From positions 11,795,287 through 11,859,286 of the forward strand of contig CP136061.1 of assembly GCA_032622095.1 (NCBI GenBank): DNA of 64,000 bases, written 5' to 3'. This document shows, one piece after another, positions 7,417-59,853 of the stretch. Made by a program: the position numbers and the translations under genes. The notes below the pieces were generated by a model. That model was not told the DNA's origin, did not search any database, and saw only the letters and a list, made by a program, of their open reading frames with translations. Numbering within the stretch: the first letter of the stretch is position 1; each line of letters begins with the position of its first letter. The stretch is from Siphonodentalium dalli (Eukaryota > Mollusca > Scaphopoda > Gadilida > Siphonodentaliidae).

Positions 7417-7429
7417 CGGGTAGGGTTCT

Positions 7430-9481: not shown

Positions 9482-10117
9482 TCTCATATATATTTTGAAG
9501 ACCTCTGTTTGTTTGTCTGTCTGTCTGTCTGTCTGTATGTCTGTCATTAATACAAATCTACGATTCTCGACCGATCGGGACGAAACTTGGTACGCGTGTG
9601 TAGTTTGACCAGGCGGTCGTCCTTGTCGTATTGGCGAGCCCGTGCGGCGCCCGCTTCGCGCATGCGCAGACGAGTTCTCGGAAACGGGTGGAGCTATCGA
9701 GTTGAAATTTGCTATGTGAATGTATCTTGCCCCGGATACGGATTTTATCGGGTCGCCGAGTCCGTGCGACGCCAGCTTCGCGCATGCGCAGACGAGATAT
9801 CGGAAACGGGTGGAGCTATCGACTTGAAATTTGGTACGTGAATGTATCTTGCCCCGGATACGAATTTTATCGGGTCGCCGAGCCCGTGCGACGCCAGCTT
9901 CGCGCATGCGCAGACGAGATCTCGGAAACGGGTGGAGCTATCGACTTGAAATTTGGTATATAAATGTATCTTGCCCCGGATACGAATTTTATCGGGTCGC
10001 CGAGCCCGTGCGACGCCAGCTTCGCGCATGCGCAGACCAGATATCGGAAACGGGTGGAGCTATCGACTTGAAATTTGGTATTTTAATAGCCCGGACAACG
10101 TCGGGCTCATCGGCTAG
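9482..10117 (+). mobile_element. Helitron array 1, unit 1
   Basis: Begins TCTCATATATATTTTGAAGA directly after host A (9481). Ends with the hairpin AGCCCG...CGGGCT, six spacer bases (catcgg) and CTAG at 10114-10117. Between them lie a (TGTC)n run and four 122-bp GC-rich units (catgcgcag at 9661, 9783, 9905 and 10027). Starting with TC and ending with hairpin plus CTRR are the known Helitron hallmarks. There is no Rep-helicase, so the element is non-autonomous. Confidence 0.85.
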
Positions 10118-10522
10118 TCTCATATATATTTTGATGACCTCTGTCTGTCTGTATGTTTGTCTGTCATTAATACAAATCTACGATTCTCGACCGATCGGGA
10201 CGAAACTTGGTACGTGTGTGTAGTTTGACCAGGCGGTGGTCGTTGTCGTATTGGCGAGCCCGTGCGACGCCCGTGCAGCGCATGCGCAGACGAGATCTCG
10301 GAAACGGGTGGAGCTATCGACTTGAAATTTAGTATGTGAATGTATCTTGCCCCGGATACGAATTTTATCGGGTCGCCGAGCCCGTGCGACGCCAACTTCG
10401 CGCATGTGCAGACCAGATCTCGGAAACGGGTGGAGCAATCGACTTGAAATTTTGTTTTTTAATATATATCGACTTGAAATGTGGTTTTTGAATAGCCCGG
10501 ACAACGTCGGGCTCATCGGCTA
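10118..10522 (+). mobile_element. Helitron array 1, unit 2
   Basis: Starts TCTCATATATATTTTGATGA immediately after the CTAG of unit 1, with no host base between. It holds two 122-bp units and ends with the same hairpin and 'catcggcta', lacking the last G before the next TCTC. Confidence 0.85.
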
Positions 10523-11032
10523 TCTCATATATATTTTGAAGACCTCTGTCTGTTTGTCTGTTGGTTTGTTTGTTCGTTTGTCATTTATACAAATCTACGA
10601 TTCTCGACCGATCGGGACGAAACTTGGTGCGTGTGTGTAGTTTGACCAGGCGGTGGACGTTGTCGTATTGGCGAGCTCGTGCGGCGCCCGTGCATCGCAT
10701 GCGCAGACGAGATCTCGGAAACGGGTGGAGCTATCGACCTGAAATTTGCTACGTGAATGTATCTTGCCCCGGATACGAATTTTATCGGGTCGCCGAGCCC
10801 GTGCGACGCCAGCTTCGCGCATGCGCAGACGAGATCTCGGAAACGGGTGGAGCTATCGACTTGAAATTTGCTATGTGAATGTATCTTGCCCCGGATACGA
10901 ATTTTATCGGGTCGCCGAGCCCGTGCGACGCCAGCTTCGCGCATGCGCAGACCAGATCTCGGAAACGGGTGAAGCTATCGACTTGAAATTTGGTTTTTGA
11001 ATAGCCCGGGCAACGTCGGGCTCATCGGCTAG
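10523..11032 (+). mobile_element. Helitron array 1, unit 3
   Basis: Starts TCTCATATATATTTTGAAGA, carries three 122-bp units, and ends in the hairpin agcccgggcaacgtcgggct, catcgg and CTAG (11029-11032). Confidence 0.85.
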
Positions 11033-11951
11033 TCTAGTATACATTTTTGAAAGATCTGTGTGTGTGTGTGTGTGTGTATCTGTGTGTTTGAAATCGATGA
11101 ACTCAAAAACGGCTAAGCCAATTTCGATGAAATTTGGTATATGGGGGTATTTTCGGGTCAGGAGTAACATAGGCCTATTGATTTTAAGATCCGAGGTCAA
11201 CTTTTCACGTGCCGAGGTCAAATCTGTTTTTACGCCGTTTTGCGCTAATATATTTCAGTTCGGTGCTCACAAATCGATTCGATATAGCGCGAATAATAAA
11301 TTGCCAATCATATAATTTACACGGTTAGAATCTGTGTGGCTTCATCTTTCCAACGATATATAATATGTATGTATCCGTTTTAGTTATCTGACTCAATTAT
11401 TAAGAAGAAGTGGTACGATCTTCTATCAGGGTAAAAACAATGCGTAACTTCTATGACGTCGTTAGAGTTCATAACGTTAGATCACGTTAACTCTTACCCG
11501 GCCGATGCATTTGACTGTTTCAGACGTCTTGGCGATATCTCGGGCACCGATGGTAATTTATCTTTACGTTGAAACTTGATAATTAATGAGCGTGTGTATA
11601 TGAGGCGCGTTTATATAATTCAGTGGAAATCAAATCGGGTTAAACTGGCGGATTTTTACGGACGAAATTTGATGCATAGGGTATCTCGGTATCCGCTGGG
11701 CCGATTTCCCGGTATCCGCTGGGCCGATTTCCACCATTTTTGGGGTGTTGGTGTTTGATCCCACCTGACCTTGACCTTCAAAATGGTCAATTCAAGGTCA
11801 AATCGGGTAAAACCGGATGGATTTCGACGGGTACTTTTGTCGGGTACTTTTGTTCGGGCACTGGACGGGTCAAATCGTGACCCCACTTGACCTTGGCCTT
11901 CAAAATAGACAATTCAAGGTCAAAGCCCGGACGAAGTCGGGTCACCTTCTA
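11033..11951 (+). mobile_element. Helitron array 1, unit 4 (second family)
   Basis: Starts TCTAGTATACATTTTTGAAA right after the CTAG of unit 3 and contains a (GT)n run, an AGGTCA-rich middle and 'gaccttgaccttcaaaatgg' modules. It ends with a different hairpin (CCCGGAC-gaa-GTCGGG), 'tcacctt' and CTA, directly followed by TCTC of unit 5. It is related to the solo element at 15416 and to units H6 and H7 of array 2. Confidence 0.8.
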
Positions 11952-12741
11952 TCTCATATATATTTTGAAGACCTCTGTCTGTTTGTTTGTATGTTTGTAT
12001 GTTTGTATGTTTGTCATTTATACAAATCTACGATTCTCGACCGATCGGGACCAAACTTGGTACGTGTGTGTAGTTTGACCAGGCGGTGGACGTTGTCGTA
12101 TTGGCGAGCCCGTGCGGCGCCCGCTTCGCGCATGCGCAGACGAGATCTCGGAAACGGGTAGAGCTATCGACTTGAAATTTGGTATGTGAATAGCCCGGAC
12201 AACGTCGGGTACGATCTTCTATCAGGGTAAAAACAATGCGTAACTTCTATGACGTCGTTAGAGGTCATAAAGTTAGATCACGTTAACTCTTACCCGGCCG
12301 ATGCATTTGACTGTTTCAGACGTCTTGGCGATATCTCGGGCACCGATGGTAATTTATCTTTACGTTGAAACTTGATAATTAATGAGCGTGTGTATATGGG
12401 GCGCGTTTATATACTTCAGTGGAAATCAAATCGGGTTAAACTGGCGGATTTTTACGGACGAAATTTGATGCATAGGGTATCTCGGTATCGCCGGTATCCG
12501 CTGGGCCGATTTCCATCATTTTTGGGGTGTTGGTGTTTGACCCCACCTGACCTTGACCTTCAACATGGTCAATTCAAGGTCAAATCGGGTAAAACCGGAT
12601 GGATTTCGACGGGTACTTTTGTCGGGTACTTTTGTTCGGGCACTGTGTTTTGGACGGGTCAAATCGTGACCCCACTTGACCTTGGCCTTCAAAATAGACA
12701 ATTCAAGGTCAAAGCCCGGACGAAGTCGGGTCACCTTCTAG
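11952..12741 (+). mobile_element. Helitron array 1, unit 5 (chimera)
   Basis: The 5' part (to about 12209) is like units 1-3, with one 122-bp unit. At 'cccggacaacgtcggg' it switches to sequence matching the inside of unit 4 ('tacgatcttctatcagggt', first seen at 11415). It ends with the unit-4 type hairpin and CTAG (12738-12741), followed by host T. This is a recombinant of the two families. Confidence 0.8.
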
Positions 12742-13625: not shown

Positions 13626-13631
13626 TTGACC

Positions 13632-13850: not shown

Positions 13851-13884
13851 CTGGACTGGCCACTAGTAACTGTTGTATTATAAC

Positions 13885-15415: not shown

Positions 15416-16135
15416 TCTATTATATATTTTGGAAGATCTGTTTGTGTGCGTGTCTGTCTGTGTGATCGCGATGGACTCGAAAACGGCCGAGCCGATTTCG
15501 ATGAAACGTGGTATGTGGGGGTATTTTCGGCCGGGGGGTGGCATGGGCCTATTAATTTTCAGATCCGAGGTCAACTTTTCACGTGCCGAGGTCAAATCTG
15601 TTTTTACGCCGTTTTGCGCTAATATATTTCAGTTCGGTGCCCACAAATCGATTCGATATAGCGCGTATAATAAATTGCCAGTCATATAATTTGCACGGTT
15701 AGAATCTGTGGCGCTTCATCTTTCCAATGATGTATCACACGCCTGTGTACGTTTAAAGTTTCTACCTTAATTATCGAGAAGAACGCAGGACCATGCTTCG
15801 CTCATCGAAAAACATTCCGTAAATATATTACGCCGTCAACAGATCGTGACGTGATCGCGTTTAACTCTTAACCGGCCGATGTCGCGTTAACTCATCACCG
15901 GCCGAGGTATCCGCAAATGGCATTGGGCAATATATATATCTCGGAAACGGGTGGAGCTATCGACTTGAAATTTGGTATGTGAATGTATCTTGCCCCGGGT
16001 ACGAATTTTATCGGGCCGCCGAGCCCGTGCGACGCCAGCTTCGCGCATGCGCAGACCAGATCTCGGAAACGGGTGGAGCTATCGACTTGAAATTTGGTTT
16101 TTGAATAGCCCGGACGAAGTCGGGTCACCTTCTAG
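15416..16135 (+). mobile_element. Solo non-autonomous Helitron
   Basis: Starts TCTATTATATATTTTGGAAG after host A (15415) and ends with the hairpin CCCGGAC-gaa-GTCGGG, 'tcacctt' and CTAG (16132-16135), followed by host T. The 5' part (to about 15900) matches array-1 unit 4, and the 3' part holds two partial 122-bp units of the unit 1-3 family. It is thus a second recombinant between the families. No protein is encoded; 16136 onward is intron of the TSP1 gene. Confidence 0.85.
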
Positions 16136-20184: not shown

Positions 20185-20193
20185 CAACGCATT
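20185..20193 (-). pseudogene. 3' tip of TSP1 exon, detached by LINE
   Basis: The nine bases caacgcatt plus the donor GT (20184-20183) match the ends of the exons at 22731, 23379 and 24016. The body of the exon is 1.9 kb away at 22111-22264 because the LINE at 20194-22110 lies between. Confidence 0.85.
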
Positions 20194-23546: not shown

Positions 23547-24015
23547 CTGTTGGAACGATGCGACACTATTAATAGCTTTCATAACGTGTCAGATATGCGC
23601 ACGCTTTGTGTTATTAATTATATTATTTCAAATCTTCTTAAACTTGTTTGATAGCGTATGATAACAGGAAAGTGGTATGGGTGTGTCTCTGTGTGTCCGA
23701 ATGTGCTTTCAGTGGCTCCCGATACTTTGTCAGTGGCTCCCGATAATTATGCTCTCAAAAATAAAATAAAATCATTGAAAAACCGAGAAAACATGGGGAA
23801 TGGTTTTAATTTAGAATGGAATCTATGTGGTGATTACTTCAGTTGGTTGAATTTTTTTGACGATGAGGTACATTAACAAAAATATACTGCTCAGCAGCAA
23901 ACCTGTGAGGTACATTAACAAAACAATGCATGAACGATACATATAACAGATATGGTACATTAACAAATAATATGTGGGTGATTGTAACGTTGACAACCAA
24001 CACAGTTATACATAC

Positions 24016-24183
24016 CAACGCATTCCGCTTCTCTGCACAGCAGCGTTTCTTCTGTGTCTCCCTTACACGCCTTACCACCTGATCCCGATGCGGGCTTAAT
24101 ACAACTCCTCGTTCGTATCTTATTCCCAATGCCACATGACGCGCTGCACGAGCCAGTTGCCCACGACGACCAATATCCATCAA
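24016..24183 (-). CDS. TSP1-domain exon (tandem copy)
   Basis: 56 codons, phase 1-1, six cysteines kept. It differs from the two previous copies by T to S before the third cysteine (R-T-R-S-C-I) and by a few silent changes. Donor at 24015-24014. The upstream intron is about 100 bp longer than in the sister units and contains 'gtcattttgacaggcaatcc', also found at 19872, which marks the array edges. Confidence 0.87.
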
Positions 24184-24748
24184 CTGTTGGAACGATGCGA
24201 CACTATTAATAGCTTCCATAACGCGTCAGATATGCGCACGCTTTGTGTTATTAATAATATTATTTCAAATCTTCTTAAACTTGTTTGATAGCGTACGATA
24301 ACAGGAAAGTGTTCTGGGTGTGTCTGTGTGTGTCCGAATGTGCTTTCAGCGGCTCCCGTCGTTGGAAAACAACAAAGCCTAATTCCGGACAAACAAGCGG
24401 TGACGATATTTTCCTGTATGTCATTCTTTGTCACCCGTCATTTTGACAGGCAATCCCCTAGTTTATCGATAATTATGCTCTCAAAAAAAAAAAAAAATCA
24501 TTGAAAAACCGAGAAAACATGGGGAATGGTTTCAGTTTAGAATGGAATCTATCAGGTGATTACTTCAGTTGATTGAACACATCAATTGTTGTGACGATTA
24601 AGTACAATAACAAAGTTATACTGCTCAGCAGCAAACCTACACAAGGTGAGGTACATTAATGTATGAGCGATACATTCAACAGCTATGATACATTAACAAA
24701 TAATATGTAGGCGATTGTAATATTGACAACCAACAGAGTTATACATAC

Positions 24749-24916
24749 CTGGGCATTCCGCTTCTCTGCACAACATCGTTTCTTCTGCATCTCCCTTACA
24801 GGACCCACCGCCTGATCCTACTGCGGGATTAATACAGGTCCTCGTTCGTATCTTATTCCCAATTCCACATGACGCGCTGCACGACCCAGTTGCCCACGAC
24901 GACCAATATCCATTAA
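24749..24916 (-). CDS. TSP1-domain exon (probable parent copy)
   Basis: 56 codons with the most canonical sequence of the group: V-N-G-Y-W-S-S-W at the start, C-S-A-S-C-G, then V-G-S-G-G-G-S-C and the usual C-P-G end, where the younger copies have C-V. Acceptor ag at 24918-24917, donor gt at 24748-24747 (ag|gtatgt). Its intron is diverged from the three near-identical units. It is the first exon of the tandem group in transcription order. Confidence 0.88.
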
Positions 24917-25273: not shown

Positions 25274-28237
25274 GAACCTTACAAAGGCGAGCATTAATCA
25301 AAGTGTATAGATAATGTATCTCTTCCGGACCACAATTATAACAACATCAGTTTTATAAAACCTGTTTTTATGAACACATACAGTTTGTTTATAAAACCAG
25401 ATTTTATGACTACAATAACTTTTCTGCGAATAAAACACTGACAAAATTAAGATTTGAGTGTTTCACTTGTCTACAAATGCATAATAATACAAGGATTTAT
25501 TACTGATGTTGCAGAGCAAAATATCTGACATTTAGACTTGTTTGAGAGTGCATGATAACAAGAACGAGTTATCCGACCTGTTAGACTCTGAACGTGTCAA
25601 GGCCGATCTGTCCCACAATGTTGTAGGTATTATGCCACGATAATTTAAATAAAACAATACTCATTCACAGAAGTGTTGCCGGATAGGGATTTTCGATTCA
25701 TATTTATGACATTTTAACCCTGAAACTATATAATACTTTTGAAAATATTGAGTTTATCTCATATAAGTGGCGGTGAGAAACACATTTCTTTCATCTGTTT
25801 CAACGACTCTGTTTCCAATCTGCCTCGTTCTGTGCGTTTCAAACTTTGTGTCAATTTTCAATTTAACTCGAATTTTGAAATGTGATACTTTTAGATTTTA
25901 ATTAATATTTTAATGTTATACTGTTGTATGGAATTAAGTTGTTTTGTTGAACCTGATATGTATACAGAACTCCAATTTGCTGCTCGGGAAGTTATGACTA
26001 TATTAGCTCATACAGTACCTGTTCGGGGAAGTTATAGTCTGGTCGTTGAGACTCGATTTTGAGGTGAACCTAGAACAAATTGTTTACAAGCTGTTTTCGG
26101 TGTCATTCGACGCGGAAAAGCATCAGGAACAACATATCAAAAATCCGCAAAAATCCGCGTTGGGGAAACTTTGTTATCAACGATGGCGTCCAACATGGTT
26201 GTCTATACTACATCAGTTCTCGATATAAGTCATTATACGATATATAATGGCATCAGAATTATGCCGTTATATCAGTTTGTGTTAAATTAGAATGCGGGAG
26301 CGAGTAGAGTGACACAGACATAAAATTATACAATCGTGGCCATGAAATGGCTGTCAAAATGGCCGCAATTCCAAACCATACCACGTAGAAAGCAACACAT
26401 TGGGTAACTACATAAGAGTGAAATACGTATTGGCAATATACAAGTCGGTTGTTAAATATCTTTAAAGGTACACACATCATTAAAACAGATCAATCTGAAG
26501 GATCATCGGTCACTGCACAGCAAGTCAACCCCCAATGATTTACGTCTTTAACGTTTGGGTGTTCTGCTTATCCAACATCCAACTGTTGGGCAAAACAAAA
26601 ATACCTCGTGCATGCAACACACGAACTAATGTTTCGCCTCACAGTGCATGGTAGTTTCATTCGGCATGGTGATTAAATATTGAATGCAACGCCGAAATTT
26701 AAGTGCATACTCTAGAGGTATACATACTAGTTATATTTCCGGAATTGTCAACACTCCCGGTGATAATAAACGATACACATATGTCGCAATGGTTATTATA
26801 CTGTAAAGAAACACTAATATCTTCAATGGATTAGCACCGAATCTCACCAGGTCAAAGAGACTGTACATAGTACATTGTATGTAAGACTAGTTTTCATTCT
26901 GCTACCAACCCGGTTTCTTAGTAGACAATTTTGTTAAAATTACTTCAGTGGCCACTTTACAACTATGCACACTATTAGTTTTCAGTATATTTTTGTTTGA
27001 AAATATATTACCATTACCACCCACGTAATCGTGCTAAATATCAGGTGATCATCGTTTAAGATGTTATTCCAACGTTGAAAATTCACCCAATATTGTTAGT
27101 TGTGGTTCTGTGTGCAACAGACATGTGTAACATTATGGAAAATGGGTAAACGCGGTGATGCGGTTGAAGACAACGTAGTAAGTTTCGCGTAGATGTGGCC
27201 TTGGTGAATTCAACCCAATATAATTTTCAGGTATAAACACAGTCTCTGTCACAGATTATGTAGGCAATTTTGGTCAAGTTTTGAATTGACTGAAGACAGT
27301 CTATGGTACTCATTTGTGATTTAATAAATTTAGTTCATGGTACACCATCACGCATTCTTGTGATAAAAGCGAAATATTCGTGTTTTATCACTTGATCTGA
27401 GGCAACTATAACTACTATTTTGAGAAACGTACAATAGGATCTACGCATTCTCCCCAGTACAATATGAACATAATTCATACCGTTTTATAGAAATAAATTT
27501 TTTAAGGTTTTATACCGTAGATATCAAAATAAATGGTGATCGGTCTCATTCGTGAGACTGCTCTGAATACATATATTTCTGCTTCTAGAGAAAGGCCGCA
27601 TAGTCAATACATCGCTACTAAATCCCGTGTAGCTGTTTAATTACACATATATCACACGATTCAAGATTAGCGGTACAGATAAAACTGCGTCATTTTTCCG
27701 TTTCTGGACACCCAAAAGTCCAGATTTAACCGTTCCACAAGACCCTGATTTCGCTTGCTCTCTCGTGAGATACATCAGAGAGAATTCGCACATCTCTAAT
27801 CAAGAGTTTCTCTTATACTTGTAGTCATTCTTCCTCGCAATATTCGAGCGTTTGTTCACTCGTATAGGACAAGCTTTTCAATTTTGCACTAAATGTAAAT
27901 TTCATTCGATTTTGTCCATTTTGGTGGCCATTTTGGGAAAAATATTCTACATATATGGTTTACGACTAAGCAATGTTTGTGTATATTTCAATTTATTACG
28001 AATTTGGCATTATTGGAGCACCTGCCGCAGAATTCAGTATTTTCCTATAACAACAGACGTTATGGACGCCATCTTCAATGGAGAATTTTCCCCAAAGCAG
28101 ATTTTAGCGGATTCTGGATATGTTGTTTCCTATATTCTGCCCGACAATATGACACCAAAAACAGCTTGTAAACAATTTGTTCTAGGTCCAATGCTTCAAC
28201 GACCAGACTATTAGGACTATGTTAGCTCATACAGTAC
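25274..28237 (-). other. Long intron of the TSP1 gene
   Basis: No exon seen. About 26220-28010 is paralogous to 51230-52046 plus 59854-60810 plus 62231 onward: shared 'gaaatggctg.caaaatggcc', 'taaaacagatc', 'gctaaatatcaggt.atcatc', 'aatgggtaaacgcgg.gatgc' and 'tttgtccattttgg'. The junction 27013/27014 (tattacca|ttaccaccc) is the empty counterpart of Helitron array 2. A 120-codon plus-strand frame at 27852-28214 has no match in its paralogue and looks accidental. Confidence 0.7.
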
Positions 28238-36196: not shown

Positions 36197-38198
36197 TTTC
36201 GCTGACATTTGAGCCCCTAATTAGAACTTTATTTCCATATATACATCAGTGCCACATATACATATTCCATTTCTGATATTTGCGATAGTATATAATTATT
36301 TCAGATTTGAAGCATCAGTACCATTGTGCTTCACTCCTGGATGCTCAACAAGGTTTTGGGTGGATTATATGGGTCGTAGAATGTCCTTAATAACAAAGAT
36401 GCTGAAGAAATAAAACATTTTAGGGTATTGATTAGTAACGCAAAACGACTGCAAAAAACGTTACCTAATGATATAATTTGAATGAATACATGTAACAAAG
36501 TGATTCATCCTTTTTCTATAAACTTTGATGAGATGGCTGCCAAAATGGCTAGAAATGGGATGGCGTATATTTCACATTATTATTGTAAATAAGTTCACTG
36601 TGGCATTTTCTTAAACTAACAGAAGAACAGGGTGTATTGTTTGGTATTCAAATGTTGAGTCTTAATTTAGTTTGAACTATTAATAATCAACATAAATGTA
36701 GAGACTGCACCTGGTTTTGTGATCAACAGTGAACAGCTGATATAATTTAAGCTATGATATATGGTGAACACTTTACTATATACTGTTCTACCTGGAACCT
36801 GTTTGTTTCGTGTTGCAACCACATGTTTCAATCATTAAATTGGATATGGCATTCGTTATAATGCAATATAATCAAGTCGTAATCAAATCAGAGATGACCA
36901 TCTACGCCGATTTATATTTCAGAATTAATCAATTATCCCAAAAGGACTAAGACAACTCATCCCACAAAAAGCTTTAGGAAATAATGGAATCATCACTACT
37001 CAATCAAAATAGTATAATGAACCTTTGGCAGCCACACAGTAATTGTGAATGGCCATATAGTTGCAGCATTCGCAGACTGAAAAAATGAGCATTTAATTGA
37101 GATAAAAAATACCCTAACAGAATCATTTATAATAACAAATAGCCCTGTACCTAACCGTTATAAATATATTTTCGATACCACACCACCCCTGGATAAGTCG
37201 TCCTGGTATTGTGCTATGATGGTGATGGGTCCTGCTGGAGTGCAATGATGTTGGTAGGGTAAACCGATGCTGCTAGGAAAGAGCACTGTTATTCTTCGTG
37301 AAGTTTGTCATTTTTGGTCGAACGTTAATCACCCCCGTGTACGTGGTATCGCCAAGCCCGAGGGTATCGCCAAAACCGAGAATATGGGAAAGTCATTTTC
37401 ACGTATATGATATGGGGATATGTTTGTTTCTCACCGTAATACAGACATCGAGCATCGTATGTGTATGTCCACACGAAGCCTGAGTATTTATCCACCAGTT
37501 GTCAATCAGTTTTCCCAGATCAGACCATTAATTGTTTTTTGGCGAATTTTTCCAATGGTGTTTTTGCTTTTGCTCACTCAAATTTTCGAGAACAACCATT
37601 CACTAGTATAGTTCCTGGACTTCCACGCTTCCAAAACAAATGCCGGTATATAGTTGAATCTGTCAATGAAACATAGGATTTGACAGAATTTAATAAATCC
37701 TTGTTGTTCTCAATATCCGCGCGATATGAAGGGACCACTGTCGGTCCAGAAAGATGCGAACGGCACAGATGAAGATGCGCCAAACGCCGAGTTTCTGTGC
37801 AGTAAATATGCGTATTACTTAAGGAGTTCTGACGAGTTTTCGAGTGTTTTAATGTGTATCTGAGACTGATCAATTGGACTGCGAATGTCAACTGAAATAT
37901 GAATCCATAACACATTCGAAATAATGTGTGCATATTATATTATGAATGTATTTCAATTGAAATTAATTGAACATCCATCTCAGCATTCAGATTTGCGATC
38001 TCAATAAAGTGAATGAATGATAAAGCGATGCCTTGATCACACGCACGTGAATGCTGCCGTTCGCATGCATGCAGCTAATCGGATATTCGTTTACTATTAA
38101 CATGCTTGGAGTTTGTATATAGACCACACATGCCGGACGACACGCTACGGCGTATCAACGATTTGTTATCATCATGTTTAGTTTACAGACTTTATGAC
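36197..38198. repeat. 2,002-bp tandem duplication, copy 1
   Basis: From 'tttcgctgacatttgagccc' to 'gactttatgac'. The next copy follows at once with an exact 2,002-bp offset; I found one base change (a at 37852, g at 39854). No gene is recognised. A 119-codon minus frame (37933-37574) is open in all three copies of this sequence but has no domain I know. Confidence 0.95.
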
Positions 38199-40200
38199 TT
38201 TCGCTGACATTTGAGCCCCTAATTAGAACTTTATTTCCATATATACATCAGTGCCACATATACATATTCCATTTCTGATATTTGCGATAGTATATAATTA
38301 TTTCAGATTTGAAGCATCAGTACCATTGTGCTTCACTCCTGGATGCTCAACAAGGTTTTGGGTGGATTATATGGGTCGTAGAATGTCCTTAATAACAAAG
38401 ATGCTGAAGAAATAAAACATTTTAGGGTATTGATTAGTAACGCAAAACGACTGCAAAAAACGTTACCTAATGATATAATTTGAATGAATACATGTAACAA
38501 AGTGATTCATCCTTTTTCTATAAACTTTGATGAGATGGCTGCCAAAATGGCTAGAAATGGGATGGCGTATATTTCACATTATTATTGTAAATAAGTTCAC
38601 TGTGGCATTTTCTTAAACTAACAGAAGAACAGGGTGTATTGTTTGGTATTCAAATGTTGAGTCTTAATTTAGTTTGAACTATTAATAATCAACATAAATG
38701 TAGAGACTGCACCTGGTTTTGTGATCAACAGTGAACAGCTGATATAATTTAAGCTATGATATATGGTGAACACTTTACTATATACTGTTCTACCTGGAAC
38801 CTGTTTGTTTCGTGTTGCAACCACATGTTTCAATCATTAAATTGGATATGGCATTCGTTATAATGCAATATAATCAAGTCGTAATCAAATCAGAGATGAC
38901 CATCTACGCCGATTTATATTTCAGAATTAATCAATTATCCCAAAAGGACTAAGACAACTCATCCCACAAAAAGCTTTAGGAAATAATGGAATCATCACTA
39001 CTCAATCAAAATAGTATAATGAACCTTTGGCAGCCACACAGTAATTGTGAATGGCCATATAGTTGCAGCATTCGCAGACTGAAAAAATGAGCATTTAATT
39101 GAGATAAAAAATACCCTAACAGAATCATTTATAATAACAAATAGCCCTGTACCTAACCGTTATAAATATATTTTCGATACCACACCACCCCTGGATAAGT
39201 CGTCCTGGTATTGTGCTATGATGGTGATGGGTCCTGCTGGAGTGCAATGATGTTGGTAGGGTAAACCGATGCTGCTAGGAAAGAGCACTGTTATTCTTCG
39301 TGAAGTTTGTCATTTTTGGTCGAACGTTAATCACCCCCGTGTACGTGGTATCGCCAAGCCCGAGGGTATCGCCAAAACCGAGAATATGGGAAAGTCATTT
39401 TCACGTATATGATATGGGGATATGTTTGTTTCTCACCGTAATACAGACATCGAGCATCGTATGTGTATGTCCACACGAAGCCTGAGTATTTATCCACCAG
39501 TTGTCAATCAGTTTTCCCAGATCAGACCATTAATTGTTTTTTGGCGAATTTTTCCAATGGTGTTTTTGCTTTTGCTCACTCAAATTTTCGAGAACAACCA
39601 TTCACTAGTATAGTTCCTGGACTTCCACGCTTCCAAAACAAATGCCGGTATATAGTTGAATCTGTCAATGAAACATAGGATTTGACAGAATTTAATAAAT
39701 CCTTGTTGTTCTCAATATCCGCGCGATATGAAGGGACCACTGTCGGTCCAGAAAGATGCGAACGGCACAGATGAAGATGCGCCAAACGCCGAGTTTCTGT
39801 GCAGTAAATATGCGTATTACTTAAGGAGTTCTGACGAGTTTTCGAGTGTTTTGATGTGTATCTGAGACTGATCAATTGGACTGCGAATGTCAACTGAAAT
39901 ATGAATCCATAACACATTCGAAATAATGTGTGCATATTATATTATGAATGTATTTCAATTGAAATTAATTGAACATCCATCTCAGCATTCAGATTTGCGA
40001 TCTCAATAAAGTGAATGAATGATAAAGCGATGCCTTGATCACACGCACGTGAATGCTGCCGTTCGCATGCATGCAGCTAATCGGATATTCGTTTACTATT
40101 AACATGCTTGGAGTTTGTATATAGACCACACATGCCGGACGACACGCTACGGCGTATCAACGATTTGTTATCATCATGTTTAGTTTACAGACTTTATGAC
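38199..40200. repeat. 2,002-bp tandem duplication, copy 2
   Basis: Almost identical to 36197-38198. Its last 870 bp also form part of the left arm of the inverted repeat with 41016-42317. Confidence 0.95.
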
Positions 40201-40620
40201 TCGTTGTCACTCGAGTAGACCGTTACGCGACAATGAAACCGAATCATCTTATCGAATATACATACATTGTATTGCTCCAACTTAGGCAATTCTGGCTTTT
40301 TAAAGAGTCATTAGATAAAATTGTAACGATTCTTGTAACATCCGAACATATATCACCACAATGTGCTATGTGTGGTACACGTGTGTACCTTCTTATCTGG
40401 ATGTCGATGGGCCTCTGTATTGTGTCTATAGCACATGTAGTCGATTACCAACATACAACACCATGTTTAAACAAAATCAAACCAGACCATGCGGTTTTGA
40501 TAAATAACGTATCTTCCTCAGATGAAGCTATATATATATATATCTGGGGAAGTGTTATGTTACACCAACACACAACTGCCACATCCCTATTACCGAGTGG
40601 ATGAATTACCCGACTAACAG
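39332..40620. repeat. Left arm of a 1.3-kb inverted repeat
   Basis: Reverse complement of 41016-42317 at high identity, from 'cacccccgtgtacgtgg' to 'cccgactaacag'. The right arm lacks about 20 bp near 'ggcgtatcaacgatttgt' and has an expanded (AT)n. Confidence 0.93.
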
Positions 40621-46799: not shown

Positions 46800-48498
46800 C
46801 GTCACTAATGTTCCCCTGAGTTGAATTGGTCCCGTCTGTAATTGTCCACCAGTGACGTATATACAGCGATGAATATCGAAATCCCATCTGGTGTCGATAC
46901 ATCCCACTTAAGAATAATTAAAGTACACAATTTTCGAAAAATTAAGATGACCCAAAAGGGTTAAAACACTCAAGTGTGACGCTGTCGAGAAACAGTGATG
47001 GAAAGGGATATCAAATTCGAGAGTGTTGTTTGTCGACGATTCCCACCAAACATACGCATGCAGAGTTACCACCATGACACAGGGAATACAATGTGCAGTG
47101 TGAATTGTACGGAGTGACGCCGTCTGGGCCAGTGCTGGTCTTTGGAGGGGCACACAAATTGTTTGTCGTAATTATTTATTTATTGGGAGTTTGGTACTGA
47201 ACCCGGGGGGATTTGGAAGGGGCGTAACCCCTCCCCTACAACCCACTTGAGATGATTTCGGGCGTTATGATGGTGGCATAACAGTGAGGTGATGTGAGGA
47301 TGATTTTAACGTTTTATTTATTTATTTATTGGGAGTTTGGGACTGAACCCGGGACAATTTGGAAGGGGCATAACCCCTCCCCTACAGCCCACTTGAGATT
47401 ATTTCGGGCGTTATGATTGTGGAATAACAGTGAGGTGATGGGAAGATGATCTAAACGTTTTATTTATTTTACTTCTTTGACACAGAGAATATAATGGTGT
47501 GGTGTGAATTGTCCGAAGTGACGCCGTCTGGGTCAGTGGTGGTCTTGGGAGGGGCACACAAATAGTTTGCCGCATATTTCCACCAACTTTTTTATAATCC
47601 TCTCAAAAATACGCATCGACTATAATGGGTATTATTCACGATTACCAACGTTACGTCACTGGAGGCAGGGATTGGGGTATCGAGGGGAATACTGGAGGCA
47701 GGGATTGGGGTGTCGAGAGGAGCACCGAATCGGATAAAAAAAAAACATTTTATCGCGGATTTTGTCAAAACGTATAGATATAGGCACCCATGATATAATG
47801 TATCTATAATGAAATTGTTAAAATTTTAAAGTCAGAAATGGCACAAACACGATATTAAAATATATGTTTCGCCGTTTATCCTAAACACTTTTATATCTGT
47901 TCAAATGCACGAGGTATGAGGTACGGGCTCAGCGGAAACAATCTCTTTCTTTCTTTCACTCTCCTTCAAGTGGGCGACTCATTGTTAGTCATCTGGCGTA
48001 CTTGCCTTGTGGCAGATTGGAAGGTTACATGTACGCAGGAGAGTTTTTTTTAATCATACAACAATATAAATAAAGAAGTGGCCATTACATAACTAAACAA
48101 AGGTTACACAAACATAGTTCTTTCAAAAAGTTTTAAATTGTGATTCAAACAGGTGACCGAGAAATTAAAGAAGTATTTGAAACTGCGACTTAAATTTACA
48201 ATCAGAGGCACAAACTATAATGAGCCGAAATTCCAATAAGAGACCGACTATGTACACATTGTAACGAACAAGTGGGGGGGGGGGGTGAAACCCATACATT
48301 ACTAGTTTGTCCGGTTCTTCAACATGCACGCGAAAAATTCATAGCCAAATTCGACTATACAAGGCCGAGTGCACATAAGGCATAAAGAAATATCAAGTGT
48401 TACATAACTTATATAAATTTATCTTCAAATGAACATAGCTATCCAGCAACAAGCCACTTAACAGATGACCCCCCCCCCAGACAATGGTGTATATCCAG
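46800..48498. other. Non-coding; two duplicated blocks
   Basis: A 146-bp direct duplication ('gggagtttgg.actgaacccg' at 47185 and 47331, with 'aggggc.taacccctcccct' hairpins) spans about 47170-47470. Flanking 'gtgacgccgtctgggcca' blocks lie near 47116 and 47520, and a 39-bp duplication 'actggaggcagggattgggg' at 47659-47720. No exon was seen. Confidence 0.6.
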
Positions 48499-49190
48499 GG
48501 ACGTGGTTAGAGGGTCTCCGTTGGGAGGGGTGTCTACCTTGGGAAATTCCAACTGCATCCCCCCCCCTTGAATCAGAATCAGAACAAACACAAGGTTTGC
48601 ATAATTCCATTTGCACCCCCTTGCACCTCAGTGTTCAGGGCTAATATTAATATCCTGTATATTCATAAACTATGGTTCTATATTTCCGGTGTCAGAAGAT
48701 TCGGATATTTTAACCTGAAAATTGCATAAATCCTAACATCTAGCGGTCTAACACCGGACAAATGCACACGACTACGGACAGGGTACTAGGACACACCGGA
48801 TCGATCATGGTTGTTCGGCTCGGTGCCAGTGTGAGAAGAAAAATTTGAAATTTATACAAGAAAATCGCAAATGCTAGCACCTAGACAGGCCTCAACCGAA
48901 GCTTTCATAGTGTTGGAAATTTCAAACCTGATACCCCCCTCAGGTTGGAAAATTCTCCAACTGATGACCATTTCAGTCCACAAGTTTGACCAAATGTAGT
49001 AGCACGTTAATAAGCAGTTTTGTATTGGCCCGCGTGTGCGAAAATTGTTATATCTGAACAAGAAAATCGAAAAATCATAGCATCTAGATTAGCTTCAAGC
49101 CTTCCTAGAGTTGGACATTTCTAACATGACACCCCCACTTAGGTTGGAAAATTTCCAACTTATGACAATTCCAATGGCAATGTTGACCAA
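48499..49190. repeat. Stand-alone copy of the foldback core (empty Helitron site)
   Basis: Matches 9335-9481 joined to 12742-13340. At 48652/48653 (ttaata|tcctgtatatt) it shows the target as it was before the Helitron array entered the other copy. The 64-bp and GC-rich arrays of the foldback ends are not next to it. Confidence 0.85.
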
Positions 49191-49491
49191 ATTGGGATAC
49201 ACCCCAAACCCCCTGTCGCCACATCTCTGTGTGTATCACCGTGTATTAACTGTCGCCAGCGCAAGACAAAATCTAAACCGTTCTGTATACAATACAGAAC
49301 GATCCCCTCCTTATTTCAATTAATTTGGAACGAGCGTCACTCCCCTAATTGTTTCGATTAACTAATGCATTCCTTCTCATAAATTTGCAGAGCACACCGT
49401 TAAGTCGGACAAATAAGGAGTCCACAGTGTGTAGGAGGAGCGATAACTCTATATGACAGCATAACATAATATTTTAAAGGGACCGGAGGCA

Positions 49492-52046: not shown

Positions 52047-53345
52047 CTAGCAGGTTAGCCCGCCACTGGCGGAATTTGTCCCATGGCTTTGTCAGAAACA
52101 TGTCTTTCAATGAGTGAATTTTTTAATTTAATTTTTTTCTTCTTCAATGGGTTAATTGTGCCTTTTTAATTTAATTTTTTGTTTTTCAATTTGACCCGAT
52201 TTGACCTTGAATTGATCATTTTCAAGGTCAGGTTGGGGTCACAATTTAACCCGTCCATGACACTTCCCGTAAGTAGCAAATTTGAGCTCAATCGGTTCGA
52301 GTCTATAAAGGACACACATTCACCACGGCAATCGGCATTGCCGTGGCAATCGACATAGGCTTCAATATTCGCCACGGCAATTGACTGCCGTGTGCCACGG
52401 ACTGCCGTAACAGTTGATAACATGTTCACATTCGGCGGATCGGGCACTGCGGTCAGTCAAACAACATAACGCGCACGCTATAACTCCGATATCACTAACG
52501 TACGCGGCATCGGGAGGGTCAGGTTAACTTCCGCCTGGATCCACGTGGCGTGACGTAATTCGCAACCACGTGTATTTACCTCGACCGCGACACACACAAT
52601 GGCCCGATAATGGGTACGCATTCCCTGGAATTTCCCAGAAGATATTCATGGGGAGTTCAAGTGACCAATTTTGAAATTTGCTGGTCGCATTCGTCTGTAG
52701 GTCTGAGGAATTCTCGGCGAGATATTGTTACCAACATGACATATTTAAATTAATCCCGCCGTGGACCCCCCATCACCAAGGCGAAGTAATTTTGGTACCA
52801 TGTGCTGCGTTCTAAAAATAGGTCGATTGCGCTGGATTCGAAATATGAGTGCTATAGAGAATATTGTTTGATCGAAAGCATTTGAATTAATACGTTACAA
52901 TACTCGCCTTGATGCTGGCTAAGAGATATTTGTCCCTGCTAGGTGTTGGGAATGTGAATTAAAATTACCGTGGGGATGCATGTGGGGGTCTAATTTTGCC
53001 ACGGCAATACACAAAATACGTCACACAACACGCTCATGTCTGGATACAGTCTTTCACGCACACGCCCAGACCCAGACGTAAGAATTACAATACACACATA
53101 CGCTCTTTATCAACGACACTGCGGATAGGAACGCTCTTTAACTATCAACGCGATTAACCCCCGCCATGCCTTTGCGGTGATTTTGGGAGTGGAGAACGCG
53201 TGCTCTGAGCTTCTCCAAAATGCCGCGACGACGACTCCCGTGGTTTTTTACATTTAGATGGGAAGTTTGAACTCAATCTGTACACGCGTTTTGGATTCTA
53301 TGAAGTACACACACACATATATACGAAGTCTCAAAATATATAGTA
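52047..53345 (-). mobile_element. Helitron array 2, unit H1
   Basis: On the plus strand it begins with CTAG at 52047-52050 (the 3' end on the minus strand). Then come 'caggttagc' and a hairpin (cccgccactggcgg, imperfect in this unit), next to host A. It contains one 130-bp 'gaccttgaattgatca' module and 'cccgccgtggac' blocks. Its 5' end (gaagtctcaaaatatatagta) abuts the CTAG of H2. Non-coding. Confidence 0.83.
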
Positions 53346-54511
53346 CTAGCAGGTTAGCCCGCCACCGGCGGCTTGTCCGAAACATGACATTTTTTTAATA
53401 TTTGTTTTTAATTTTTAGCTCCACGCGTTTCAATAAGAAAAATTTGTACCCGGTAGCTCCACCCGTTTCCGAGATCTGGTCTGCGCATGCGCGAAGCTGG
53501 CGTCGCACGGACTCGGCGACCCGATAAAATTTGTACCCGGCGCAAGATACATTCACATAGCAAATTTCAAGTCGATAGCTTTACCCGTTTCCGAGATCTC
53601 GTCTGCGCATGCGCTGCACGGGCGTCGCATGGACTCGGCGACCCGATAAAATTTGTACCCGGTGCAAGATACATTCACATAGCAAATTTCAGGTCGATAG
53701 CTCCACCCGTTTCCGAGATCTGCCTTTCTGCATAATATTTCGAGCGATAACATTGCATTGAAATGTCAGACTCCCATCGTGAACCTCAACACGAAGTAAA
53801 CACGTGTTTCGAGCGATAACATTGCATTGAAATGACTCCCATCGTGAACCTCAAGACGACGTAAAACACGTGTTGCGTTCTAGGAAATGCACTCAATGCA
53901 GATGCTAATAACGTTGACTTCGTATATATATATATATATAATGACGTTATTAACCCCGGCCGTGCCGTTTGAGCTGATTTTTATGACTGGGAGTGGAGTA
54001 CGGGTGCTCGGAGCTTCGGGAAAACGCGTGGACGACATCGTACGTGATATTTTACCTTTAGATAGGAAGTTTGAGCTCAATCTGTCCAGCCGTTCCCGTC
54101 CTAATGTACTATTTCGAGCGATAACAATTGTCAGACTCCCATCGTGAACCTCAACACGAAGTAAACACGTGTTTCGAGCGATAACATTGCATTGAAGTCA
54201 GACTCCCATCGTGGACCCCCAAGACGACGTAAACACGTGTTTGTTCCGGTATAACTTTGGAGACTCTGACTTCATATATATATATAATGACGTTATTAAC
54301 CCCGGCCGTGCCGTTTGAGCTGATTTCGATGACTGGGAGTGGATAAAGGGTGCTCAGAGCTTCTCGAAAACACATCTACGGCGGTGTCGGTGGGATTTTA
54401 CACTTACATACGAAATTTGATCTCAATCTGTACACGCGTTTTGGATTCTATGAAGTACACACACACACACACACATACACACATATATACGAAGTCTCAA
54501 AATATATAGTA
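53346..54511 (-). mobile_element. Helitron array 2, unit H2
   Basis: CTAG at 53346 with hairpin CCGCCaccGGCGG, two 122-bp GC-rich units (53449-53720) and 'taaccccggccgtgccgttt' blocks. It ends at 54511 with 'gaagtctcaaaatatatagt'. Nearly identical to H3, so the two were made together or one copied the other recently. Confidence 0.85.
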
Positions 54512-55709
54512 CTAGCAGGGTAGCCCGCCACCGGCGGCTTGTCCGAAACATGACATTTTTTGTTTTTCAATGAGTTAATTGTGACATTTGTTTATATATT
54601 TTTTTTTAATTTTTAGCTCCACGCGTTTCAATAAGAAAAAATTGTACCCGGTAGCTCCACCCGTTTCCGAGATCTGGTCTGCGCATGCGCGAAGCTGGCG
54701 TCGCACGGGCTCGGCGACCCGATCAAATTTGTACCCGGCCCAAGATACATTCACATAGCAAATTTCAAGTCGATAGCTCCACCCGTTTCCGAGATCTCGT
54801 CTGCGCATGCGCTGCACGGGCGTCGCATGGGCTCGGCGACCCGATAAAATTTGTACCCGGTGCAAGATACATTCACATAGCAAATTTCAGGTCGATAGCT
54901 CCACCCGTTTCCGAGATCTGCCTTTCTGCATAATATTTCGAGCGATAACATTGCATTGAAATGTCAGACTCCCATCGTGAACCTCAACACGAAGTAAACA
55001 CGTGTTTCGAGCGATAACATTGCATTGAAATGACTCCCATCGTGAACCTCAAGACGACGTAAAACACGTGTTGCGTTCTAGGAAATGCACTCAATGCAGA
55101 TGCTAATAACGTTGACTTCGTATATATATATATAATGACGTTATTAACCCCGGCCGTGCCGTTTGAGCTGATTTTTATGACTGGGAGTGGAGTACGGGTG
55201 CTCGGAGCTTCTGGAAAACGCGTGGACGACATCGTACGTGTTATTTTACCTTTAGATAGGAAGTTTGAGCTCAATCTGTCCAGCCGTTCCCGTCCTAATG
55301 TACTATTTCGAGCGATAACAATTGTCAGACTCCCATCGTGAACCTCAACACGAAGTAAACACGTGTTTCGAGCGATAACATTGCATTGAAGTCAGACTCC
55401 CATCGTGGACCCCCAAGACGACGTAAACACGTGTTTGTTCCGGTATAACTTTGGAGACTCTGACTTCATATATATATATAATGACGTTATTAACCCCGGC
55501 CGTGCCGTTTGAGCTGATTTCGATGACTGGGAGTGGATAAAGGGTGCTCAGAGCTTCTCGAAAACACGATTACGGCGGTGTCGGTGGGATTTTACACTTA
55601 CATACGAAATTTGATCTCAATCTGTACACGCGTTTTGGATTCTATGAAGTACACACATATATACACACACATATATATACGAAGTCTCAAAATATATAGT
55701 ATAGATAGA
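54512..55709 (-). mobile_element. Helitron array 2, unit H3
   Basis: Same structure as H2, with small indels in the (CA)n and (TA)n runs. Its 5' terminus on the minus strand is TCTATCTATACTATATATTT, preceded by the CTAG of H4. Confidence 0.85.
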
Positions 55710-56487
55710 CTAGCAGGTTAGCCCGCCACTGGCGTGCTTGGCATGCGCGAAGCTTGCGTCGCACGGACTCGGCGACCCGATAAAATTCGTACCCGGGGCA
55801 AGATACATTCACATACCAAATTTCAAGTCGATAGCTCCACCGGTTTCCGAGATCTCGTCTGCGCATGCGTTGCACGGGCGTCGCACGGAGTCGGCGACCC
55901 GATAAAATTTGTATCCGGGGCAAGATACATTCACGTAGCAAATTTCAAGTCGATAGCTCCACCCGTTTGCGAGATAACACATTCTTTGTTTTTCAATGAG
56001 TTAATTCATGGTACCCGTCCTAACTAAACTTCAGAGCGGACAGTCAATTAATCCCGTCGTGAAATCCCTCTGCATAATATTTCGAGCTCTTAGATCAATT
56101 CTGCCTTTTTAGTTTCATTTCGTCCGCGTCCGTATTTCGGACGCATGGGTCAGTCGTTTAGCCACGATCATTGGAATCCACTTCCGTATTTCTGACGCAT
56201 GTGGTGTGTCGTTTAGAAACGACCATATCAATAAAGAGCGTTAGTTACTAAAACCTCCGTATAAGGTATAGATAAAGAGTGTTGTTGCCTTAACCCCCGC
56301 CGTGCCTTTGCGGTGATTTGGGAGTGGATAAAGGGTGCTCAGGGCTTCTCGAAAACCCGACTACGACGATACCCGTGTGTTTTTACATTTAGATGGGAAG
56401 TTTGAACTCAATCGGTAGACGCGTTTTGGATTCTATGAAGTACACACACACACATATACGAAGTCTCAAATTATATAGTATAGAAGA
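55710..56487 (-). mobile_element. Helitron array 2, unit H4
   Basis: CTAG at 55710 with 'cccgccactggcg', two 122-bp units (about 55740-55970), then 'cccgccgtgcctttgcggtg'. It ends 'gaagtctcaaattatatagt' before the CTAG of H5. Confidence 0.83.
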
Positions 56488-58158
56488 CTAGCAGGTTAGC
56501 CCGCCACTGGCGTGCTTGGTCAGAAACATGACATTTTTTAAATACATTTTTTAACGATTGATTCGTTAATTGAACTGAATGGTCAGAAAACAGAATTGAA
56601 AACGCGAGGAGACAATCAATGAATTAATTCTGCCTTTATATCAAGAGAAATTATGGTCTCACCATGGACCAATAACAATTCAAGTACAAAGTTAATTAAA
56701 TTGTAAATTGTTTTCGTCCCATGGCTTTGTTTCAGAAACATGACATTTTTGTAATTATTTTGTTTTTATTTGTTTTTTATTTTTTAATATGAATTTAATG
56801 TTTTTAAAAATTAATTTTTTGTTTCTGGCGGAAAAATTTACCCGTAGAAATCCCCCCTTCCTAGGAACGACAGACAACGCATTCTTTGTTTCGTGAAATC
56901 TCTCTACGATAGCATTGCATTGAATTTAAAACAAACGCTTCCCGTCGGGAAATCTGTCTGCATAATATTTCGAGTCTGCCGTACCCGTCGTAATGTCGTG
57001 AAATCTCGACTGCATAATAGATAACATTGCATCGAATCTGTTGTTGGCATTCAGGGCTTCGGGCCGTTGTTGTTGGCATCACGGCTCCCCGAAAACTCTC
57101 ACATTGCCGAAAACGTGTATTTAGTAATATCGTTGTTGTTGATATTTACGGCTTGGGGGCTATTTTCTCGCCAACAATGTCGTTGGCGTTCACGGTTTGG
57201 GGCAGTGTGTATAGCTGCGTGAGTTAGCAGGAATCGAGGGGTGTAAGTTTAGAGCTTGTTTATATGAATGTTTCGGAAATAGCCGTAACAGCCGTAACAA
57301 AAAATGTATACATCAGAAAATGTAAATACCATCGGCTTTCATGTGTAGTAAAGATGTCTTATAAGCCGACATTGCCGTGGGGATGCCCGTTCCTACACGC
57401 GTTTTCGATTCTATGAAGTACCCACATATATACACACATACACACATATATCCGATCGGTCGAGGTGTTGGTATCTGATGCAAAAGACGAAACTGTGAGT
57501 GTTGGTCAATAGTCCCCGCCGTGAACCTCATCGTCGCAAAGAGCGGACAGTCAATTAACCCCGTTGTGAACCTCAATCACCAACACGACGTAAACATGTG
57601 TTACGTTCTAAAAATAGGAAAGCACTTTCTCTCGTACGTAGCAAGTTTGAGCTCAATCGGCATTCCCTGGAATTTCCCGTAGATTGGCAGATTAATATAA
57701 TTCCAGTAGCTTTATAACGGTATATCTGGATAGAAATCTGATGCTATATTCGTGATTATCTGGGATGATTTCGGTATATAACTATATACTGTAAAAACAA
57801 AGCGCGCAATCCGTGCTCACAGGGTTGGTCAGAAACAAATGTTTTTTTAATTTAATGTATGTTCCGTATATCTCCCTGCAGATGCAAATAACGTTGAATG
57901 GCAAACAGACGCTCTTTATAGCGATGCGTAAAAAACAAACGCTCATTAAATAATCACTTGATTAACCCCCGCCGTGCCTTTGCGGTGATTTGGGAGTGGA
58001 TAAAGGGTGCTCAGGGCTTCTCGAAAACCCGACTACGACGATACCCGTGTGTTTTTACATTTAGATGGGAAGTTTGAACCCAATCTGTACACGCGTTTTG
58101 GATTATATGAAGTACACACATATACACACATACGAAGTCTCAAAATATATAGTATAGA
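56488..58158 (-). mobile_element. Helitron array 2, unit H5
   Basis: CTAG at 56488 with the same 3' hairpin. The longest unit (1.67 kb), lacking the 122-bp repeats but with 'gcctttgcggtgatttggga' as in H4. It may contain a smaller old insertion. Its 5' end 'gaagtctcaaaatatatagt' meets CTAG of H6 at 58159. Confidence 0.8.
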
Positions 58159-59048
58159 CTAGAAGGTGACCCGACTTCGTCCGGGCTTTGACCTTGAATT
58201 GTCTATTTTGAAGGCCAAGGTCAAGTGGGGTCACGATTTGACCCGTCCAAAACACAGTGCCCGAACAAAAGTACCCGACAAAAGTACCCGTCCAAATCCA
58301 TCCGGTTTTACCCGATTTGACCTTAAATTGACCATTTTGAAGGTTAAGGTCAGGTGGGGTCAAACACCAACACCCCAAAAATGGTGGAAATCGGCCCAGC
58401 GGATACCGGGAAATCGGCCCAGCGGATACCGAGATACCCTATGCATCAAATTTCGTCCGTAAAAATCCGCCAGTTTAACCCGATTTGATTTCCACTGAAG
58501 TATATAAACGCGCCTCAAGTTTCAACGTAAAGATAAATTACCATCGGTGCCCGAGATATCGCCAAGACGTCTGAAACAGTCAAATGCATCGGCCGGGAAA
58601 GAGTTAACGTGATCTAACTTTATGACCTCTAACGACGTCATAGAAGTTACGCATTGTTTTTACCCTGATAGAAGATCGTACCACTTCTTCTTAATAATTG
58701 AGGCAGATAACTAAAACGGATACATACATATTATATATCGTTGGAAAGAGGAAACACGAAAGATTCTCATAGTGTCATTATTATGACTGGCATGTTATTA
58801 TTCGCGCTGTTTCGAATCGATTTGTAAGCACCGAACTGAAATATATTAGCGCAAAACGGCGTAAAAACAGATTTGACCTCGGCACGTGAAAAGTTGACCT
58901 CGCACGGACAAATTAATAGGCCTATGTTAGTCCTGACCCGAAAATACCCCCACATACCAAGTTTCATCGAAATCGGCTGGGCCATTTTCGAGTCCATCGA
59001 TTACACACAAACAAACACACAAACAGATCTTCCAAAATATATAATAGA
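58159..59048 (-). mobile_element. Helitron array 2, unit H6 (second family)
   Basis: CTAG then 'aaggtga' and the hairpin CCCGAC-ttc-GTCCGGG, as in array-1 unit 4 and the solo element. Contains the AGGTCA-rich modules. Its 5' end on the minus strand is TCTATTATATATTTTGGAAG at 59048. Confidence 0.85.
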
Positions 59049-59781
59049 CTAGAAGGTGACCCGACTTCGTCCGGGCTTTGACCTTGAATTGTCTATTTTG
59101 AAGGCCAAGGTCAAGTGGGGTCACGATTTGACCCGTCCAAAACACAGTGCCCGAACAAAAGTACCCGACAAAAGTACCCGTCGAAATCCATCCGGTTTTA
59201 CCCGATTTTACCTTTTAACCCGATTTGATTTCCACTCAAGTATATAAACGCGCCTCATATACACACGCTCATTAATTATCAAGTTTCAACGTAAAGATAA
59301 ATTACCATCGGTGCCCGAGATATCGCCAAGACGTCTGAAACAGTCAAATGCATCGGCCGGAGAAGAGTTAACGTGATCTAACTTTATGACCTCTAACGAC
59401 GTCATAGAAGTTACGCATTGTTTTTACCCTGATAGAAGATCGTACCACTTCTTCTTAATAATTGAGGCAGATAACTAAAACGGATACATACATATTATAT
59501 ATCGTTGGAAAGAGGAAACACGAAAGATTCTCATAGTGTCATTATTATGACTGGCATGTTATTATTCGCGCTGTTTCGAATCGATTTGTAAGCACCGAAC
59601 TGAAATATATTAGCGCAAAACGGCGTAAAACAGATTTGACCTCGGCACGTGAAAAGTTGACCTCGCACGGACAAATTAATAGGCCTATGTTAGTCCTGAC
59701 CCGAAAATACCCACACATACCAAGTTTCTTCGAAATTGGCTCAGCCGTATTTGAGTCCATCGATTACTGACAGACAGATAG

Positions 59782-59824
<43 letters not shown>

Positions 59825-59853
59825 TCTTTCAAAATATATAATAGATAGATAGA
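59049..59853 (-). mobile_element. Helitron array 2, unit H7 (second family)
   Basis: Near-identical to H6 with a deletion of about 150 bp in the 'gaccttaaattgaccatttt' region and an expanded (AC)n (59785-59822). On the minus strand it begins TCTATCTATCTATTATATAT at 59853 after host A (T at 59854 on plus). Confidence 0.85.

What the first reader, a model, noticed from the sequence alone, without database searches (positions are those of the whole stretch)
52047..59853. Seven Helitrons joined head to tail, with the empty target site in the same window
The insert is bounded by CTAG on one side and a TC-type 5' end on the other, and contains seven units with no host DNA between them. The host reads atatacca|...|ttgccaccc. 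The paralogous intron at 27013/27014 reads tattacca|ttaccaccc. This shows a clean insertion between A and T with no target duplication, as known for Helitrons. Two families (C-type H1-H5, B-type H6-H7) coexist in one array. Tandem arrays are an expected product of failed termination in rolling-circle transposition, and seven units of mixed families is striking.
Basis: partly seen in the sequence, partly recalled or inferred. Interest (0 to 1): 0.85.

Follow-up and report, generated by a model that had tools for sequence, protein, structure and literature searches.

The report
Seven Helitron transposons joined head-to-tail
In an unidentified, probably animal genome, seven non-coding rolling-circle transposons (Helitrons) with two kinds of ends sit end to end in one insertion site, and a second such row lies nearby, so Helitrons may land on the ends of other Helitrons; rows of this kind are already known from bats, maize and silkworm, and these two are a useful test case.

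Summary
52047-59853 is one insertion of seven head-to-tail Helitron-like units (minus strand), absent without target duplication from a paralogue (about 76% identical) at 27013/27014. Its empty site is at 48652/48653, again A|T, but that paralogue has six more bases five bases before the joint. It also missed a solitary B-ended copy at 15416-16135. All ten unit-unit joints are head-to-tail: six CTAG|TC, two lacking the first four bases of the downstream 5' end, two lacking the final G of CTAG. 'Failed termination' is only partly supported: six of ten joints link units that are not overall copies of one another, and in their 3' halves B-type neighbours are no more alike than copies 47 kb apart. 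Insertion one by one at resident Helitron ends fits better, but is inferred. Head-to-tail arrays and adjacent unlike Helitrons are already reported for bat, maize, silkworm and fungi: a long, mixed example of a known kind. Host unidentified; no genome held.

The parts
52047..53345 (-). Unit H1 (C-type 3' end GCTAACCTGCTAG; 5' end TACTATAT, lacking TCTA), 3'-most unit
53346..54511 (-). Unit H2 (C-type; 5' end lacks TCTA; holds 122-bp repeats)
54512..55709 (-). Unit H3 (C-type; near copy of H2; 5' end TCTATCTATACT; holds 122-bp repeats)
55710..56487 (-). Unit H4 (C-type ends; 5' end TCTTCTATACT; holds 122-bp repeats)
56488..58158 (-). Unit H5 (C-type ends; 5' end TCTATACT)
58159..59048 (-). Unit H6 (B-type; 3' end GTCACCTTCTAG)
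59049..59853 (-). Unit H7 (B-type; 5' end with two more TCTA than H6), 5'-most unit
27013..27014 (.). Empty site of the seven-unit array in a paralogous sequence (26268-27998)
9482..10117 (+). Second array, unit U1 (U-type, 122-bp internal repeats)
10118..10522 (+). Second array, unit U2 (U-type; 3' end CTA, G missing)
10523..11032 (+). Second array, unit U3 (U-type)
11033..11951 (+). Second array, unit U4 (B-type; 3' end CTA, G missing)
11952..12741 (+). Second array, last unit, a chimaera: U-type part to about 12209, then the 3' half and 3' end of a B-type
48652..48653 (.). Empty site of the second array in a paralogous stretch (48496-49192), which has six extra bases just before the joint
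15416..16135 (+). Solitary copy: B-type 5' part and 3' end with U-type repeats between; flanked by A and T; no empty site found

Best explanation
Both arrays are clusters of non-autonomous Helitrons built largely by repeated insertion at the ends of a Helitron already in place. Each insertion leaves a host A next to the element's own 5' TC, so an A|T target exists again exactly at the resident 5' end. A new element of any family that the same RepHel transposase can move may enter there and give a CTAG|TC joint without host DNA between units. Insertion at the next A|T, four bases inside a C-type 5' end (TCTA|TACT), would give the two joints that lack TCTA. The constant head-to-tail direction suggests that the transposase also uses the resident end as an oriented acceptor, perhaps by nicking it as it nicks a donor, or by joining a circle at its CTAG|TC junction. 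Shown: units, joints, empty sites, direction, mixed families. Inferred: stepwise order, the role of the resident end, and the transposase itself (none seen here).
For: Two separate arrays each occupy one A|T site with an empty counterpart in the window. Six of ten joints (H1/H2, H3/H4, H4/H5, H5/H6, U3/U4, U4/chimaera) link units that are not overall copies; three of these have no BLAST match between the neighbours (H5/H6, U3/U4, U4/U5). The four B-type 3' halves are about equidistant within and between arrays: H6-H7 367/372, H7-U6 391/396, U4-U6 516/524. Ten of ten joints are head-to-tail; with random orientation this has probability 2^-10 (about 0.001), or 2^-6 (about 0.016) for the six joints just named (own arithmetic). 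The end motifs searched gave no complete element of these families nested inside a unit, although only 58 of 1011 AT steps lie within about 13 bases of a 5' start (14 stretches, solo included, chimaera as two, an A set before each). The two short joints begin just after TCTA of the TCTATACT start. Du et al. 2008 gave the same A/T argument for two unlike head-to-tail maize Helitrons (PMC2267711, passages).
Against: H2/H3 (1138/1158) and the 5' halves of H6/H7 (430/442, against about 90% to U4) are close pairs and may be tandem copies. The identities show no obvious age gradient along the arrays; this was not formally tested. The TCTA count does not balance: H1 and H2 lack one each, while H3, H4 and H7 carry one, three quarters and two extra, so slippage must be added. 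The two CTA|TC joints are not predicted. Insertion at A|T does not by itself fix orientation. Nested elements of unknown families inside units were not excluded. Everything comes from one window.
Confidence: 0.55

Rival explanations
1. Rolling-circle concatemer: termination was bypassed and a multi-unit strand was copied and inserted in one event.
For: CTAG|TC joints equal the circle junction reported for Helraiser (PMC4778049, passages); constant direction is automatic; H2/H3 and H6/H7 are alike. Tandem arrays in bats and silkworm have been explained by bypassed termination (PMC4067079, passage).
Against: One template gives identical units; four of six joints in the main array link units that are not overall copies, and B-type neighbours are not closer in their 3' halves than copies in the other array. 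Two CTAG|TACT and two CTA|TC joints are not exact.
Confidence: 0.15
2. Mixed history: a few independent end-to-end insertions, then local tandem duplication or unequal exchange between units, giving H2/H3 and perhaps H6/H7 and U1-U3.
For: H2 and H3 are 98.3% alike over gap-free bases, and H1 and H2 have the same TACT start, as an exchange between TACTATAT ends would leave. The chimaeric unit and the mosaic solo copy show exchange between families.
Against: Cannot by itself make the first joints between unlike units; length differences within both close pairs need later changes.
Confidence: 0.25
3. Assembly artefact: repeats of different loci were strung together.
For: The units are repetitive and no reads were available.
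Against: Both arrays have empty counterparts whose flanks continue on both sides, and both start and stop at Helitron termini.
Confidence: 0.05

Closest known systems
Adjacent head-to-tail Helitrons of maize (AF466202; Du et al. 2008, PMC2267711, passages read)
   Same: Unlike elements joined CTAG|TC with no host A between; explained by consecutive insertion
   Different: Two units there, seven and five here; here empty counterparts lie in the same window
Tandem Helitrons of Myotis lucifugus and Bombyx mori (as cited in passages of PMC4067079 and, for the bat, PMC2267711; original papers not read)
   Same: Head-to-tail arrays; PMC4067079 adds that distantly related Helitrons can lie directly next to one another in bat and maize
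   Different: As cited, the arrays are attributed to bypassed termination; their unit numbers and family make-up were not seen by me
Tandem or nested Helitrons of Fusarium and Metarhizium (PMC5148889, passages read)
   Same: [quoted passage not shown] three copies in tandem in M. acridum; multiple 5' ends
   Different: Non-canonical fungal Helitrons; fewer units
Oyster Helitrons with central satellite repeats (PMC8268682, passages read)
   Same: Short internal tandem repeats in Helitrons with several kinds of ends
   Different: Repeat here is 122 bp; no sequence comparison was possible

Membership tests
Helitron (canonical, non-autonomous) | Insertion between host A and T without target duplication | tested here: met
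   Empty counterparts at 27013/27014 and 48652/48653 (the second paralogue has six extra bases five bases before the joint); the solo copy is flanked by A and T, but no empty site was found in the window
Helitron (canonical, non-autonomous) | 5' TC | tested here: met
   Five of seven units of the main array, five of five of the second, and the solo copy; H1 and H2 lack it
Helitron (canonical, non-autonomous) | 3' CTRR (here CTAG) | tested here: met
   Seven of seven in the main array, three of five in the second (U2 and U4 end CTA), and the solo copy
Helitron (canonical, non-autonomous) | Short GC-rich hairpin just before the 3' end | tested here: inconclusive
   11 of 13 unit ends were folded (not U2, U4); each minimum-energy fold has a hairpin (4 to 10 pairs, some bulged), but energies are weak against shuffles (z -0.05 to -2.11). 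A scan for perfect stems of 6 bp or more with loops of 2-7 before CTAG found none in the window and none in 10 random sequences. A looser scan (5 bp or more, loops 3-9) gave 6 rows at 5 unit ends, one hairpin being listed twice, and none outside the arrays, against 0-2 in each of 20 first-order Markov sequences
Helitron (canonical, non-autonomous) | Mobilised by a RepHel transposase | not testable with these tools
   All 28 frames of 90 aa or more that overlap the two arrays and the solo copy were scanned against Pfam: 27 had no family at E 0.1, one a hit far below its cut-off. The units are thus non-coding; the genome, where an autonomous partner would lie, is not held
Helentron/Helitron2 | Insertion between T and T (rule recalled) | tested here: not met
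   Both empty counterparts are A|T
Helentron/Helitron2 | Subterminal inverted repeats | not tested
   No search for them was made

The most novel reading that the evidence does not exclude
The 5' (and perhaps 3') end of a resident Helitron is an oriented landing site: the transposase recognises and nicks it as it would a donor, and joins an incoming element of any compatible family there, so arrays grow like beads on a string in one direction. The CTA|TC joints would be places where a resident 3' end was nicked and lost one base before joining.
Probability: 0.3. Interest if true: 0.7.

Novelty: new member of a known kind. Interest (0 to 1): 0.42.

Why it matters
Why Helitrons form rows has been explained in more than one way: bypassed termination, circles, or insertion beside one another. 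Mixed arrays with their empty counterparts in reach help to separate these ideas, because neighbours can be compared with copies elsewhere. If resident ends are oriented acceptors, this would help to explain clustering, chimaeric elements and part of satellite formation from Helitrons.

Tried and rejected
Single concatemer for the whole array: rejected as the main cause because many neighbours are not copies of one another. H7 and the last unit of the second array as closest relatives, which the BLAST table suggested (98-99%): not upheld; in the 3' half all four B-type copies are about equally distant, and in the 5' half H6 and H7 group together (23 sites for H6+H7, 5 for H7+U4). Strict hairpin scan: found nothing even at the real ends, so it was repeated with looser rules. 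Relatives elsewhere: four exact patterns from unit ends in viral contigs and one in genome contigs gave none; these collections hold viruses, bacteria and archaea. Host identity: not determined. Literature: eight completed searches. Passages only, no whole text, were seen of PMC2267711, PMC5876387, PMC5148889, PMC13253262, PMC13286980, PMC12477314, PMC4778049, PMC4067079, PMC8268682 and PMC4683698. I saw no array of seven mixed units in those passages, but papers on the bat arrays and on tandem centromeric Helitrons were not held, so I make no claim that such arrays are unpublished.

Full report
Observation. The stretch 52047-59853 holds seven units on the minus strand, each ending in CTAG and abutting the next. 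The host flanks align without a break to 26268-27013 and 27014-27998 (76.8% and 75.7%). At base level the paralogue reads TACCA|TTACC where the filled site reads TACCA|array|TTGCC: insertion between A and T, no duplication, no remnant.

What was missed. A second array lies on the plus strand at 9482-12741. It has five units: three of a U-type family (5' TCTCATATATATTTTG, 3' CATCGGCTA or CATCGGCTAG), one B-type, and a last unit whose 5' part is U-type up to about 12209 and whose remainder is the 3' half of a B-type. Its flanks align to 48496-48646 and from 48653 on; the 5'-flank alignment scored 196 against a maximum of 27 in 50 mononucleotide shuffles. Joined, the flanks read TTATA|TCC against TAATA|TCC in the paralogue, which in addition has six bases more, placed five bases before the joint. 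So the cut is again A|T, but a small insertion or loss on the 5' side cannot be excluded. A solitary copy at 15416-16135 has B-type ends and U-type repeats inside and is flanked by A and T.

Joints. Ten joints were listed. Six are CTAG|TC; at two of these the following start has three or four more bases than that of H5. Two (in front of H1 and H2) read CTAG|TACTATAT, four bases short of the TCTATACTATAT start of H5. Two (10522/10523 and 11951/11952) read CTA|TCTC. All ten are head-to-tail.

Who is related to whom. H2 and H3 are near copies (1138 of 1158 gap-free aligned bases). H1, H4 and H5 share with them and each other chiefly about 200 bp at the 5' end (81.7-90.6% over the first 220 bases for the nine pairs other than H2-H3) and the 3' end; there are also shorter and weaker matches. 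H2, H3 and H4 carry the same 122-bp repeats as the U-type units and the solo copy, so interior modules have moved between families. The B-type copies H6, H7, U4 and the last unit of the second array are about equally distant in their 3' halves (98.2-98.7%), whereas in the 5' half H6 and H7 group (430/442) apart from U4 (398/443 and 411/454).

Mechanism. CTAG|TC joints are what bypassed termination, circle junctions, or insertion at the A|T between host A and resident 5' T would all give. Unlike neighbours speak against one concatemer. Direction speaks against unguided A|T insertion: ten of ten, or six of six between units that are not overall copies (own arithmetic, 2^-10 and 2^-6). Position speaks the same way: 58 of 1011 AT steps lie near a 5' start (14 stretches, the solo copy included, the chimaera counted as two, an A set before each), and yet the joints are at ends and the end motifs showed no complete element of these families nested inside a unit. 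Nested elements of other families were not excluded. Hence the reading that resident ends act as acceptors; this step is inferred. The TACT joints fit insertion at TCTA|TACT, but the left-over TCTA tetramers (H3 one, H4 three of four bases, H7 two) exceed the two missing ones, so slippage is needed. The CTA|TC joints remain unexplained.

Known work. Du et al. 2008 describe two unlike maize Helitrons joined CTAG|TC and argue for consecutive insertion, naming the A/T made by host A and the 5' T as one route (PMC2267711, passages). A passage of PMC4067079 states that tandem arrays occur in M. lucifugus and B. mori and that distantly related Helitrons can lie directly next to one another in bat and maize. 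PMC5148889 reports three copies in tandem in a fungus. PMC4778049 reports active circles with an exact head-to-tail junction, and read-through. PMC12477314 cites a preference of Helitrons for inserting near Helitrons. The present arrays are therefore a long, mixed example of a known kind.

Limits. The host is unknown, no whole genome was held, exact-pattern scans of a viral and a bacterial and archaeal collection gave nothing, and no reads were available. The 3' hairpins are short and not clearly better than shuffles. No transposase domain was found in the 28 frames of 90 aa or more that overlap the arrays and the solo copy; one of them had a match far below its family's cut-off.

Noticed in passing
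7424-9247 and 13630-14811: Inverted pair of tandem-repeat blocks (16-bp and 64-bp units, stretches up to 96% alike) on either side of the second Helitron array, as in a foldback-type element into which the array is nested.
   Followed up: partly
10522/10523 and 11951/11952: Two joints after different 3' families both lack the final G of CTAG, and both precede a TCTCATATATATTTTGAAGACC 5' end.
   Followed up: partly
36197-40201: Two head-to-tail copies of about 2003 bp, 99.95% identical: a very recent tandem duplication or an assembly duplicate.
   Followed up: no
744-30090, minus strand: Nine TSP1-like motifs suggest a thrombospondin-repeat gene with many exons; five of them, at 22206-24905, are spaced 634-733 bp apart in repeated blocks.
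   Followed up: partly
20163-21464: 433-aa open frame with a reverse transcriptase domain (RVT_1, E 2.5e-29).
   Followed up: partly
53733-54440 and 54931-55634: H2 and H3 each contain two diverged copies (79-80%) of a segment from the 5' part of the element, reminiscent of the multiple 5' ends reported in fungal Helitrons.
   Followed up: no
3192-3526: Diverged 130-bp tandem repeat related to the 3' region of the B-type units (about 76%).
   Followed up: no
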